A DNA stretch of 64,000 nt from Prevotella sp. (lineage in GTDB: Bacteria > Bacteroidota > Bacteroidia > Bacteroidales > Muribaculaceae). Under the pieces are notes generated by a model that worked only from the letters and a program-made list of their open reading frames with translations, did no database searches and was not told the DNA's origin. Shown in pieces: positions 27,185-45,140 of this stretch; position 1 is the first letter of the stretch; every line of letters begins with the position of its first letter. A program made the position numbers and the translations under genes. The DNA lies in assembly GCA_023666665.1 (NCBI GenBank), contig JAMPBN010000004.1, forward strand, positions 1 to 64,000. The letters are read 5' to 3'.

Positions 27185-28471
27185 TTATAGAAAGGGTATG
27201 GCGTAGAGTGGTATGTTTGTTAGCCAATCTTGTTGTTTGTACGGAAGGAGTGAAAATCTCAATCCTTTGATTTCCGGATTGTTCTTGACATATTCCGCTA
27301 TGGATTTTCCCTTGACGTTTGTGCCGCTCTTTACTTCAATCGGAATGGCTGCGCTCCCTTGTTGAATCACGAAATCAATCTCTGCGGGTGAATTCTCCTT
27401 GCTCCAATAAAAGAGCTGAACATTCTCAGAGCTGAGTTGTTGGGCAACATATTCTTCGGCAATCATTCCGTTGTATGTCTCAAGGTCATTGTAATTTAGC
27501 AGCATATCTGACGGCGCCACGTCCGACATGCAACAAAGCAGTCCGACATCGAGGAAAAACAGCTTGAACACACCCAACGCCTCGTAAAATTTAAGCGGTG
27601 CGGCTATCTTTGATACCCGACATACCTTATATACTAAACCGGCATCAATCAACCATTGTATGGCAGTTTCGAATTCTGCGGCACGCCCCCCCGGCTTAGC
27701 TGCACCATAAATGAAGCGTTTGTTTTCTCGAGCCAATTGCGACGGCAAGGAGTTGAGGACGAGTCCAACACGAACTGATTCTGATTTTGTGGTATGCTTT
27801 GAAATGTCCATTCTATAGGAGTCAAGAATAGCCTGTTGAAGTCGGCGAACTTCCTTAGGGTCGTTGTTTTGAGCAAATTGCCTGACGACTTCCGGCATAC
27901 CGCCCACGAAATAATATTGCCGCAGATATCCAATAATTTTTGGTGACAACGCATCAATGAGCGGCGATTTATAGTCTTTGAGCGTCTTGCAGAGCATTGA
28001 CTGACCTAAGGCATCCAGGAACTCGCTGAAATCCATAGGGTAAACCCGAAGCATATCAACCTTTCCGACCGGGAATGAATCTTCACGACTAAGTGTTACG
28101 CCGAGCAGTGACCCGGCGGCAATGATGTGATATTCAGGAGCGTTTTCGCAGAAGTATTTCAGACTGTGGAGCGCTCGCGGCGCTTCTTGTATTTCATCAA
28201 GTATGATAAGCGTTCTTCCTGCAATAATCGTTTGATTGGCAATGGCCTGAAATGCGAGTATGAGCCGCGAAATATCGTAATCTCCGGTAAAGAGATTGCG
28301 CGTAAGAGTTTCCTCATCGCAATTTATATAGGCAACGTTTTCATACTCTTCCCGCCCGAACTCTTTCATCAACCAAGTCTTACCAACCTGTCTTGCGCCT
28401 AAAAGAAGCAGTGGTTTGCGGCTTTCTGAGGACTTCCATTCGAGCAGCTTTTTGTAAATTCTTCTTTTCAT
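27185..28471 (-). CDS. AAA ATPase with DUF4143 domain (PD-(D/E)XK-like C terminus)
   Basis: A 428-residue cytoplasmic protein of the AAA_14/DUF4143 family. The Walker A motif is GARQVGKT (25-32) and Walker B is LIILDEIQ (88-95). After a central helical region, the C-terminal DUF4143 part carries the pattern of a PD-(D/E)XK nuclease fold: AEEYVAQQL, then AEIDFVIQQG (D366) and IPIEVKSG (E379, K381). Biochemical function is unproven in the family; such proteins are abundant and often laterally moved in Bacteroidetes. The promoter carries three direct repeats with a 33-bp period. The gene is bracketed by two copies of one palindrome and stands alone. A second, diverged member lies at 43977-45128. 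Confidence 0.87.
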   Translation of the reverse strand: MKRRIYKKLLEWKSSESRKPLLLLGARQVGKTWLMKEFGREEYENVAYINCDEETLTRNLFTGDYDISRLILAFQAIANQTIIAGRTLIILDEIQEAPRALHSLKYFCENAPEYHIIAAGSLLGVTLSREDSFPVGKVDMLRVYPMDFSEFLDALGQSMLCKTLKDYKSPLIDALSPKIIGYLRQYYFVGGMPEVVRQFAQNNDPKEVRRLQQAILDSYRMDISKHTTKSESVRVGLVLNSLPSQLARENKRFIYGAAKPGGRAAEFETAIQWLIDAGLVYKVCRVSKIAAPLKFYEALGVFKLFFLDVGLLCCMSDVAPSDMLLNYNDLETYNGMIAEEYVAQQLSSENVQLFYWSKENSPAEIDFVIQQGSAAIPIEVKSGTNVKGKSIAEYVKNNPEIKGLRFSLLPYKQQDWLTNIPLYAIPFL

Positions 28472-28494: not shown

Positions 28495-28502
28495 CAAAGT
28501 TA
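28495..28502 (-). promoter_or_regulatory. -7 promoter element of the first ATPase gene, inside repeat copy 1
   Basis: Minus-strand TAACTTTG is formed by the end of the first repeat copy. The equivalent place in copies 2 and 3 reads TAACTTTTG and TAACTTTTT, so only the copy nearest the gene matches the spacing of the consensus. Start codon at 28471. Confidence 0.6.
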
Positions 28503-28581
28503 CATAAATCTGAGGGAATATACAAGCAAAAGTTACACAAATCTGAGGGAATATTTTGTAAAAAGTTACATAAATCTGAGG
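28496..28581 (-). repeat. Three direct repeats with exact 33-bp period upstream of the first ATPase gene
   Basis: The core AAAGTTACAYAAATCTGAGG begins at 28496, 28529 and 28562 (plus-strand sense); copies 1 and 2 also share the following GAATAT. Between cores lie 13 unlike or partly alike bases. The array covers the promoter of the ATPase gene and starts 25 bases from its ATG. Confidence 0.92.
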
Positions 28582-28594
28582 TATGGGCGGGTGT

Positions 28595-42364: not shown

Positions 42365-43834
42365 ATGAGTTTTTTTGAAGATTTCAAGCGCCGCGTGGCC
42401 GAAAACAAGCCCACCCGCTGGGTGCGTTTCGCTCTGGTGTCGGTATTGTTTCTGCTGTGGGTCTACTGGCTGAACAATTGGTGGGTAGCTCTGTGGTGGC
42501 TGCTGCTGTTCGACATCTATATCACCGGCTATATCCCCTTTACGTGGTGGAAAAAAGCCAAGTCCGGAACTGTCCGCACCGTTATGGGGTGGGTCGACGC
42601 AATAGTTTACGCCCTGGTGCTGGTCTACTTTGTATTTGCATTCATCGGCCAGAACTATCAGATTCCCTCTTCGTCGCTCGAAAAGACGTTGCTTACCGGC
42701 GACTTCCTGTGGGTCAACAAGACGGCTTATGGCCCGCGTGTGCCGATGACTCCGGTACATTTTCCGCTGGTGCAGAACACATTCCCGGTTGTCAACACCA
42801 AGAGCTACCTCGACTCTCCGCAGTGGAAATACCACCGCCTGAAAGGCCTCGGCTCGGTGCAGTTGGGCGACATCGTGGTGTTCAACTTTCCCGGCGGCGA
42901 CACCGTGGCGCTCAAAGCTCAAAACCCCGACATCTATGCCCTGTCGCGCATCATCGGCGAGCGAATGATTGCCCAAGGCGGCGCCCCCGACCCCTCCGGC
43001 TCTCTCATTGAGCGCGACGCGGCAGTCCGCGCACTCGGAATGCGCTACATCAGCAACAATCCGCAGACCTTCGGCGAAGTGATTTGGCGACCAGTTGACC
43101 GCCGCGAAAACTACGTCAAGCGCTGCGTCGGTCTGCCCGGTCAGGAGTTCAAAATCGTTAACGGCGTGATTTACAACGACGGAGTAAAACTCCCGAACTA
43201 CACCCACGTGCAGTATAACTACAACTTCACCCATAGCGACTGGGACAAAATGTCAACCCAAGAGCGCGAAGCATACTGGGACAACATCGAAGTGGCAAAA
43301 GCCGACCGCGTCAACGACCCGCAACACGACCGTCAGGGCGTGGCGCTGACTCAGCAGCAAATCCAAACGCTGAAAAGCGACCCAAAAGTCACCTCAATCA
43401 AGCGTATGGAATACACGCCCTACGACAACTTCCTCTACCCGCTCGCGACCTCGATGGCCGACGGCTGGACTCTCGACGACTACGGACCCATTACCATACC
43501 CGCACGCGGCATTACCGTGAAACTTGACGAAGAGGGCTGGGCGCGCTATGGCCACGCCATTTCCCACTATGAGCCTCACACCGCCGAGTGGCGCAACGGC
43601 CGGGCATATATTGACGGCCAACCCGCTGATGAATACACCTTTGAGATGGACTACTACTTTATGATGGGCGACAACCGACACAAGTCGCTCGACTCGCGCT
43701 TCTGGGGATTCGTGCCGGAAGACCACATCGTTGGCCGCCCCGAGGTAGTACTCATCAGCTTCGACCCCGACAAGCACTTCCCCTTCAACATCCGCACCGA
43801 CCGCCTCTTCCGCCGCGTGCCGACCTTCAACTGA
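42365..43834 (+). CDS. lepB: Signal peptidase I
   Basis: A 489-residue, large Bacteroidetes-type signal peptidase I that removes signal peptides of exported proteins. Two or three N-terminal transmembrane helices (about 20-40, 42-60 and 75-98) are followed by the catalytic Ser motif QIPSSSLEKTLLTGDFLWVN and the catalytic Lys motif ENYVKRCVGLPGQ. The terminal box MMGDNRHKSLDSRFWGFVP matches SPase box E. A large insertion between Lys and the last box accounts for the length. Cotranscribed with dapB. Its last eight bases and stop form the start of the first 33-bp repeat that precedes the ATPase gene. Confidence 0.94.
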   Translation: MSFFEDFKRRVAENKPTRWVRFALVSVLFLLWVYWLNNWWVALWWLLLFDIYITGYIPFTWWKKAKSGTVRTVMGWVDAIVYALVLVYFVFAFIGQNYQIPSSSLEKTLLTGDFLWVNKTAYGPRVPMTPVHFPLVQNTFPVVNTKSYLDSPQWKYHRLKGLGSVQLGDIVVFNFPGGDTVALKAQNPDIYALSRIIGERMIAQGGAPDPSGSLIERDAAVRALGMRYISNNPQTFGEVIWRPVDRRENYVKRCVGLPGQEFKIVNGVIYNDGVKLPNYTHVQYNYNFTHSDWDKMSTQEREAYWDNIEVAKADRVNDPQHDRQGVALTQQQIQTLKSDPKVTSIKRMEYTPYDNFLYPLATSMADGWTLDDYGPITIPARGITVKLDEEGWARYGHAISHYEPHTAEWRNGRAYIDGQPADEYTFEMDYYFMMGDNRHKSLDSRFWGFVPEDHIVGRPEVVLISFDPDKHFPFNIRTDRLFRRVPTFN

Positions 43835-43918
43835 CGAATTTTATACAAATTTCCGTCTGTCAACTGACCGAATTTATTAAAATATCCGTCTGTCAACTGA
43901 CTGAATTTAGTTAAAAAG
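43827..43918 (+). repeat. Three direct repeats with exact 33-bp period upstream of the second ATPase gene
   Basis: TCAACTGAC followed by GAATTT begins at 43827, 43860 and 43893; TCCGTCTG precedes the second and third copies (43852, 43885). The first copy starts within the last codons of lepB. The sequence is unrelated to the array at 28496-28581, but copy number and period are the same. Confidence 0.92.
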
Positions 43919-43920
43919 TG

Positions 43921-43951
43921 TTGCATACGTCAGATCAATTGCGTAACTTTG
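43921..43951 (+). promoter_or_regulatory. Promoter of the second ATPase gene
   Basis: TTG (43921-43923), a 20-base spacer and TAACTTTG (43944-43951), directly after the third repeat copy. Start codon at 43977, leader about 20 bases. Confidence 0.75.
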
Positions 43952-43976: not shown

Positions 43977-45128
43977 ATGGCTCAGATAATTCGCACAATA
44001 ACAGACAGGGTTGACCGAAAAGTCATCCCGGGTAAGGCTACGATTATATACGGTGCGCGGCGTGTTGGCAAGACTATTCTGCTTCGCGACATCATTCAAC
44101 GCCACGCCGATGACGCCCCGATGCTGCTCAACGGCGAGGATGCCATGACAGTGCAAATGTTTGCCAACCGCACGGTAGCAAACTATCGCGGACTCTTTGG
44201 CGGCACACGTCTTCTTGCAATTGATGAAGCGCAGAATATTCCTGAGATAGGCAAGGTTTTGAAGCTGATTGTTGACGAAATGCCCGATTTGGCGGTTATT
44301 GCTACCGGCTCGGCATCTTTCGATTTGCTCCAACAAGTTGGGGAGCCGCTCGTTGGTCGCGCATCGCAGTTTTTGCTCTTGCCATTTTCAAAAGAGGAGA
44401 TTTCGCAGATTGAGAACCCGATACAAGCAATGTCATCGCTTCCCGATCGGCTGATTTACGGTTCATACCCCGACGTTGTTATGCAGCCTAATTTTGCTGA
44501 AAAGCAAGATTATCTGCGAGACCTCGCCAGTTCATATCTCCTTAAAGATATTCTTGCGGTCGACGGTATTAAAAATTCTGCAAAGATGCGCCAACTTTTA
44601 CAGTTCGTGGCCTGTCAAGTAGGTTCAGAGGTATCTACCGACGAGTTATCGCGTACGCTCTCAATGAGCAAGAATACCATAGAACGCTATTTGGACTTAC
44701 TGAGCAAAGTTTTCGTACTCTATCGTCTTGGAGGATACTCGAGAAATCTCCGCAATGAAGTTGTGCGCACCTGCAAATGGTATTTCTACGACAACGGAGT
44801 GCGCAATGCCGTAATCGGAGACTTCCGCCCCCTTGAGGCGCGTCAAGATGTCGGCGCCCTATGGGAAAACTATCTCATCAGTGAGCTACTGAAAATGAAC
44901 AACAATCTCGCTTGGCACAATCGCTACTACTTTTGGCGCACATATCAGCGCAAAAAGATTGACCTCATAGAGGAGACCGAGCCGGGCAAACTCAACGCAT
45001 TTGAGTTTAAATGGGGCACGAAAAAGCCCGTAATGCCCGAAGACTTTGCCCGAGGCTATCCCGACGCCACCTATACCATAGTATCTCGCGACAACTACTA
45101 CTTCGAATTCCTAACTCCCAATTCCTAA
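43977..45128 (+). CDS. AAA ATPase with DUF4143 domain, second and diverged copy
   Basis: A 383-residue member of the AAA_14/DUF4143 family. Walker A is GARRVGKT (26-33), Walker B LLAIDEAQ (79-86). A winged-helix-like segment (about 200-250: SEVSTDELSRTLSMSKNTIE) lies between the ATPase and the C terminus. The C-terminal part keeps a PD-(D/E)XK-like pattern, KKIDLIEE (D329) and NAFEFKWG (E343, K345). It shares only the family fold with the gene at 27185-28471. The function is not established. It sits between lepB and an aminotransferase gene, behind its own repeat array and promoter; the end (LTPNS) is encoded by a heptamer repeat. Confidence 0.87.
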   Translation: MAQIIRTITDRVDRKVIPGKATIIYGARRVGKTILLRDIIQRHADDAPMLLNGEDAMTVQMFANRTVANYRGLFGGTRLLAIDEAQNIPEIGKVLKLIVDEMPDLAVIATGSASFDLLQQVGEPLVGRASQFLLLPFSKEEISQIENPIQAMSSLPDRLIYGSYPDVVMQPNFAEKQDYLRDLASSYLLKDILAVDGIKNSAKMRQLLQFVACQVGSEVSTDELSRTLSMSKNTIERYLDLLSKVFVLYRLGGYSRNLRNEVVRTCKWYFYDNGVRNAVIGDFRPLEARQDVGALWENYLISELLKMNNNLAWHNRYYFWRTYQRKKIDLIEETEPGKLNAFEFKWGTKKPVMPEDFARGYPDATYTIVSRDNYYFEFLTPNS

Positions 45129-45140
45129 TTCCTAACTAAT
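45106..45140 (+). repeat. Heptamer array across the ATPase stop codon
   Basis: Tandem AATTCCT, AACTCCC, AATTCCT, AATTCCT, AACTAAT. The array encodes the last residues of the ATPase, includes its TAA (45126-45128), and ends 4 bases before the next start codon (45145). Confidence 0.85.

What the first reader, a model, noticed from the sequence alone, without database searches (positions are those of the whole stretch)
43827..43918. A second ATPase/DUF4143 gene has its own three repeats, also with a 33-bp period but unrelated sequence
Seen: TCAACTGAC-GAATTT units at 43827, 43860 and 43893. The first starts in the last codons of lepB. Neither sequence nor position can come from the array at 28.5 kb, yet copy number (three), period (33 bp) and place (just upstream of, or over, the promoter) are the same. 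Two independent cases in one window make chance unlikely.
Basis: seen in the sequence. Interest (0 to 1): 0.8.

Follow-up and report, generated by a model that had tools for sequence, protein, structure and literature searches.

The report
Self-recognising repeats before an ATPase-nuclease gene
The three 33-bp repeats are real and belong to the ATPase gene downstream: across many bacteria each gene of this widespread candidate phage-defence family has its own repeats, and three amino acids of the encoded protein predict the repeat's letters, so the protein very probably binds its own promoter.

Summary
Observation confirmed: three 33-bp units at 43820-43918, the first running through the end of lepB; a separate three-unit array of other sequence lies at 28496-28594. 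This is a family trait. In the sampled part of this genome, 7 of the 11 promoters with strong 31-34-bp periodicity (of 643) belong to AAA_14/DUF4143 ATPase genes. About three quarters of P0001 orthologs (66/90), and 26/28 relatives of the 28-kb gene, carry units spaced 32-33 bp just upstream. lepB is irrelevant: ten congeneric genomes have lepB without array or ATPase. The P0001-type unit is a 14-bp dyad whose letters co-vary with three residues at the start of the predicted recognition helix (231-233 of 383), more than with any other stretch of the protein and after correcting for relatedness. Held-out genes confirm it (SKN gives GTCA, AUC 0.98; D-x-K gives GGA, 0.86-0.99; DKN gives GTGA, 0.94). 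Best explanation: the ATPase/winged-helix/nuclease-like protein binds its private array and controls its own promoter, probably repressing it. The protein is PDC-S01, a very common but unvalidated phage-defence candidate. Binding, autorepression and defence are all untested at the bench.

The parts
43820..43918 (+). array of three 33-bp units upstream of the ATPase gene
43822..43835 (+). unit 1 dyad, degenerate (GACCTTCAACTGAC); right half-site supplies the lepB stop codon
   Evidence: read; junction seen against relatives
43855..43868 (+). unit 2 dyad (GTCTGTCAACTGAC)
43888..43901 (+). unit 3 dyad (GTCTGTCAACTGAC)
43944..43951 (+). putative -7 promoter box TAACTTTG (TAnnTTTG type)
   Evidence: read; TAnnTTTG found in 91/110 family upstreams versus 8% of shuffles
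43977..45128 (+). ATPase gene P0001, 383 aa: AAA_14 + winged HTH + DUF4143; PADLOC PDC-S01
44667..44675 (+). codons of residues 231-233 (Ser-Lys-Asn), start of the recognition helix, which co-vary with the repeat half-site
44865..45011 (+). PD-(D/E)XK-like residues E297, D329, E343, K345, nearly invariant in about 185 relatives
28496..28594 (-). second array, three 33-bp units of unrelated sequence (TTCCCTCAGATTTrTGTAACTTT), last unit overlapping the TAACTTTG box of its gene
27188..28471 (-). ATPase/DUF4143 gene of a second subfamily, owner of the 28.5-kb array

Best explanation
The repeats are a private operator array of the ATPase gene. The encoded protein (AAA+ ATPase, winged helix-turn-helix, PD-(D/E)XK-like C-terminal domain) binds the 14-bp dyad in each unit through its recognition helix, probably cooperatively along units set three helical turns apart, and controls its own promoter, most likely by repression. 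Residues 231, 232 and 233 set the half-site letters: 232 reads position 1 (Lys-G, Arg/Ser-T), 233 reads position 2 (Asn-T, Lys-G, Glu/Asp-C), 231 reads position 3 (Ser-C, Asp-G). Array plus gene form a one-gene module gained between lepB and an aminotransferase gene. Shown: the array, the family-wide association, the co-variation, prediction in held-out genes, no second array of the motif in the genome, the site without the module in relatives. Inferred: physical binding, repression rather than activation, and the output (an ATP- or ligand-controlled nuclease, possibly anti-phage).
For: Family genes own most strong 31-34-bp arrays of the sampled genome. Arrays in 66/90 orthologs versus 7/201 neighbouring genes, at least two of these 7 being family ATPases themselves, and in 26/28 of a second subfamily versus 0/280 shuffles. 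Co-variation: windows centred on residues 232 and 233 rank first and second of all three-residue windows after correction for protein identity (r 0.375 and 0.371; permutation maximum 0.13; best window clear of the helix 0.16). Residue-base table: 233 Asn-T 53/62, Lys-G 19/22, Glu/Asp-C 7/8; 231 Ser-C 49/57, Asp-G 32/36; 232 Lys-G 50/65, Arg-T 11/17. Held-out AUC 0.983, 0.856-0.987, 0.940 for three classes. AlphaFold2 model puts 231-233 at the start of the recognition helix. Sites lie 5' of the gene (1.87 per 200 bp) and not 3' (0.13) or inside (0.05). In the whole genome the motif (up to 2 mismatches) occurs at its own array and one isolated 2-mismatch site. Dyad centres are commonest 15-18 bp upstream of the -7 box, i.e. 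inside the promoter, and a distant branch has one long palindrome near or over the start codon (19/25 above the 99% null level): both fit repression.
Against: No binding or expression data. In this very gene the intact unit nearest the promoter is centred 49 bp upstream of the -7 box, so occlusion by that unit is not evident and activation is possible. 24 of 90 orthologs fail the period test, some because they have one palindrome instead. A register-fixed readout matched only 3 of 9 predictions in the second held-out set because it often picked the second, AT-rich dyad of the unit. The code was derived within one branch of the family; the 28-kb subfamily has non-palindromic units and was not decoded. 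Half-site position 3 versus residue 231 is nearly tied with clade-marker columns.
Confidence: 0.82

Rival explanations
1. The protein binds the array, but as an initiator- or partition-like platform (in the manner of archaeal Orc1/Cdc6 on origin boxes, or plasmid iterons) or as an assembly site for the nuclease, with promoter control a side effect.
For: AAA+ plus winged helix resembles Orc1/Cdc6 and other STAND-type proteins in the fold search; spaced repeats beside the gene resemble iterons; relatives occur on plasmids, one directly after repC.
Against: Here the module is one chromosomal gene between housekeeping genes; no conserved replication or partition neighbours in relatives; the closest solved structure is SSO1545, not Orc1; promoter register and start-codon palindromes point to transcription.
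Confidence: 0.1
2. The array is the moving end or target site of a mobile cassette made of array plus gene, and binding serves transposition.
For: The module is absent at this site in ten congeneric genomes, and the left edge of the insertion falls in the first repeat; relatives have varied neighbours.
Against: No matching repeats at the 3' end of family genes (0.13 versus 1.87 sites per 200 bp); no transposase or integrase domain in the protein; in Flavobacterium the gene keeps a shared neighbourhood in up to ten species.
Confidence: 0.05
3. The repeats are chance, slippage products or regulatory DNA of lepB, unconnected with the ATPase.
For: The first unit overlaps the end of lepB.
Against: Ten congeneric lepB genes lack the array; orthologs elsewhere carry it; unit sequence co-varies with the ATPase recognition helix.
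Confidence: 0.01

Closest known systems
PDC-S01, PADLOC phage-defence candidate (AAA_14/DUF4143, COG1373; arCOG03166 described as AAA+ ATPase fused to HTH and RecB nuclease domains, PMC4158269)
   Same: Same protein family: HMM match E 1e-142 over residues 4-375; ATPase fused to a PD-(D/E)XK domain (PMC12988326).
   Different: No cognate upstream array or recognition code is mentioned in the passages read or found in the literature searches; this copy lies between housekeeping genes, not in an evident defence locus.
SSO1545, archaeal AAA+ ATPase (PDB 2fna), STAND-like
   Same: Best fold match, E 1.9e-8 over 360 aligned columns.
   Different: 14% identity and TM-score about 0.5; no operator array known to me.
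Archaeal Orc1/Cdc6 and origin recognition boxes
   Same: AAA+ plus winged helix; repeated sites near the gene (the latter from general knowledge).
   Different: Poorer fold match, extra nuclease-like domain, no replicon context; many orthogonal copies per genome.
Autoregulated one-gene modules such as phage repressors and restriction-modification C proteins (from general knowledge)
   Same: HTH protein with its own tandem dyad operators; specificity set at the start of the recognition helix.
   Different: Operator binding, ATPase and nuclease-like domains are in one protein, and the arrays are dyads repeated every 32-33 bp.

Membership tests
PDC-S01 (PADLOC) | HMM match over the full protein | tested here: met
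   E 1e-142, residues 4-375 of 383
PDC-S01 (PADLOC) | AAA+ ATPase with intact Walker motifs | tested here: met
   G26, G31, K32, D83, E84 invariant
PDC-S01 (PADLOC) | PD-(D/E)XK nuclease domain | tested here: inconclusive
   E297, D329, E343, K345 nearly invariant; the isolated-domain model found no solved nuclease below E 0.05
PDC-S01 (PADLOC) | anti-phage activity | not testable with these tools
   experimental validation is still pending for most PDCs of the core defensome (PMC12988326)
PDC-S01 (PADLOC) | embedding in a known defence locus | not tested
   neighbours here are lepB and an aminotransferase; no defence survey of the surroundings was made
autoregulatory operator array | sites in the promoter region of the protein's own gene | tested here: met
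autoregulatory operator array | site sequence tracks the DNA-contacting residues of the protein | tested here: met
autoregulatory operator array | protein alters its own transcription | not testable with these tools
   needs a reporter assay
Orc1/Cdc6-type initiator | array acts as a replication origin | not testable with these tools
   no replicon genes in the window neighbourhood
dispersed repeat (REP/BIME-like) | many copies over the genome | tested here: not met
   motif within 2 mismatches: its own array plus one isolated site in 2.16 Mb

The most novel reading that the evidence does not exclude
PDC-S01 genes are self-addressed one-gene modules whose ATPase-nuclease acts on DNA bearing the cognate array, so that a resident copy excludes incoming elements with the same array; the family's 'defence' label would then partly reflect competition between such modules.
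Probability: 0.1. Interest if true: 0.92.

Novelty: new variant of a known kind. Interest (0 to 1): 0.78.

Why it matters
PDC-S01 is reported as the fourth most common defence across prokaryotes (29,494 bacterial and 9,986 archaeal copies in one survey, PMC12988326) and as the most frequent individual defence locus in rumen genomes (PMC13356809), while its mechanism is unknown. The arrays give a handle: a predicted binding site for many members of this branch, a three-residue recognition code that point mutations can test, and a first indication of how these genes may be controlled. Natural variation in residues 231-233 with matching sites also makes the family a model for how regulators and operators change together.

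Tried and rejected
lepB ownership of the repeats: rejected. Genome-wide dispersed repeat: rejected. Coding-repeat artefact: the one other period 30-36 array of the scan (C11:546861, period 30) lies in an open frame coding a GPSWGWSWGY repeat. Register-fixed half-site readout: unreliable, because each unit has a second AT-rich dyad midway; 3/9 in the second held-out set, replaced afterwards by a register-free test. The DKN and DRA motifs were read off the first held-out set and are independent tests only in the second. Within-genome avoidance of shared specificity: 1 of 46 same-genome pairs shared residues 231-233 against 4.9% between genomes, not significant (p 0.32). Fold search with the isolated C-terminal domain: no match below E 0.05. 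Literature searches (COG1373, DUF4143, AAA_14, SSO1545, arCOG03166, PDC-S01 and combinations) found no report of the arrays; most subscription papers and all preprints are not held, so absence is not proof.

Full report
Observation. The window has three 33-bp units at 43820-43918. Two carry TGTCAACTGAC-n-GAATTT exactly; the first is degenerate and runs through the lepB stop codon. The gene downstream (43977-45128) encodes 383 aa with AAA_14 (E 5e-25) and DUF4143 (E 3e-38) domains. A second array of unrelated sequence at 28496-28594 precedes another such gene on the other strand.

Is it chance? A scan of 853 kb of the host genome, blind to genes, for three-copy arrays of period 15-80 gave four period-33 arrays, one of period 32 and one of period 34, all next to AAA_14/DUF4143 genes; the one other array of period 30-36 lies in an open frame coding a repetitive peptide. 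Of 643 upstream regions in that DNA, 11 had at least 16/20 matches at period 31-34, and 7 of these precede family genes; with 12 family genes assumed among the 643, Fisher p is 3e-11. The genome holds about a dozen such genes; most have arrays of different sequence, a few have inverted repeats only (read by eye). The sampled regions were chosen partly to include family genes, so the rate per gene is the fair comparison, not the count.

Does it belong to the ATPase? Orthologs of P0001 were gathered from the taxonomic family, from 68 contigs of GTDB genomes and from the class. In 90 of them the best doublet had period 31-34 in 71, and 66 reached 14/20 at that period; 7 of 201 upstream regions of neighbouring genes did so too, at least two of these being other family ATPases. 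The second subfamily gave 26 of 28 against 0 of 280 shuffles. Period 32 reappears in a Treponema plasmid copy. In a more distant branch with strong DUF4143 matches the array is mostly replaced by one palindrome of about 31-44 bp near or over the start codon (19 of 25 genes above the 99% null level), and by about 22-bp spacing in a few. lepB is not involved: all ten other genomes of the genus have lepB followed within about 160 bp by the aminotransferase gene, without ATPase or array. The window's lepB ends RRVPTFN where relatives end with other residues, so the left edge of the insertion lies in the first repeat. No neighbours are conserved beyond related species.

Anatomy. In the P0001 clade each unit contains a 14-bp dyad; the SKN-class consensus over 33 genes is GTCAaTnnAcTGAC, repeated at 32 bp, with a second AT-rich dyad midway (AATTTAcaTtAATT). 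A TAnnTTTG box occurs in 91 of 110 upstreams against 8% of shuffles, most often 15-18 bp downstream of a dyad centre. In the window gene the box is 49 bp from the centre of the last intact unit, one unit further than the commonest position. Sites are 5' (1.87 per 200 bp) and not 3' (0.13) or inside the gene (0.05). In the whole genome the motif with up to two mismatches is found at its own array and at one isolated two-mismatch site.

Recognition. AlphaFold2 (pLDDT 93.7, pTM 0.91) places a helix at 221-228 and the recognition helix at 232-244; the closest solved structure is the archaeal AAA+ protein SSO1545. Half-sites were read by a procedure blind to the protein (110 genes, effective number 66). 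Among all alignment columns, residue 232 has the highest mutual information with half-site position 1, 233 with position 2 and 231 with position 3 (the last nearly tied with clade markers). Controlling for identity outside the HTH, three-residue windows centred at 232 and 233 rank first and second of all windows (r 0.375 and 0.371; permutation maximum 0.13; best window clear of the helix 0.16). The table is simple: 233 Asn-T 53/62, Lys-G 19/22, Glu or Asp-C 7/8; 232 Lys-G 50/65, Arg-T 11/17; 231 Ser-C 49/57, Asp-G 32/36 (sequences counted, not independent events). Close relatives illustrate it: L109 (SKN, GTCA) and L112 (SRN, TTCA), 68% identical outside the HTH.

Prediction. A rule was written down before the held-out loci were read. 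Register-free scoring on held-out genes gave AUC 0.983 for SKN to GTCA (25 against 64 genes), 0.856 and 0.987 for D-x-K to GGA, 0.983 for SRN (n=2) and 0.964 for DKE (n=3). The DKN rule (GTGA) was added after the first held-out set and scored 0.940 in the second (n=5). A register-fixed readout did poorly in the second set (3/9) because it often selected the midway dyad; the register-free score was chosen after seeing that, which is a weakness.

Mechanism. The simplest reading is that the protein binds its own array and regulates its own promoter. Repression is favoured by dyads inside the promoter in many relatives and by palindromes near or over the start codon in the distant branch, but in this gene activation is not excluded. 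Spacing of three helical turns, two alternating dyads per unit and an AAA+ domain suggest ordered oligomers on DNA; this is inference. Conserved Walker residues and E297/D329/E343/K345 point to an active ATPase and nuclease; trigger and substrate are unknown.

Relation to known systems. The protein matches PADLOC's PDC-S01 (E 1e-142), described as the fourth most common defence across prokaryotes and as an ATPase fused to a PD-(D/E)XK domain, and as the most frequent individual defence locus in rumen genomes. Homologs occur in 542 plasmid records and 19 phage records, mostly at low identity. No report of cognate arrays or of a recognition code was found in the open-access library. The family is known; the arrays and the code appear to be a new property of it.

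Noticed in passing
window 28496-28594 and gene 27188-28471 (-): The 28.5-kb array belongs to a second ATPase subfamily whose units are not palindromic: a variable block followed by an A-rich stretch and TGT; 26/28 relatives carry such arrays at 32-34 bp, each with its own block. Its code was not worked out.
   Followed up: partly
L343-L371: Distant DUF4143 relatives carry one long palindrome near or over the start codon (19/25), and a few have 22-bp-spaced repeats instead.
   Followed up: partly
own genome C11:1249730-1252933 (L011, L025): A short, apparently truncated AAA_14/DUF4143 gene still has 34-bp-spaced repeats upstream.
   Followed up: no
L337 (Bacteroides finegoldii plasmid 60, NZ_OY725962.1): A 57%-identical relative sits directly downstream of an RteC-domain gene, as in conjugative-transposon regulation modules.
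   Followed up: no
window about 45107-45137; own genome C11:499870: Runs of short TAACTCC/CTTAACC-like repeats in or near intergenic DNA, of unknown origin.
   Followed up: no
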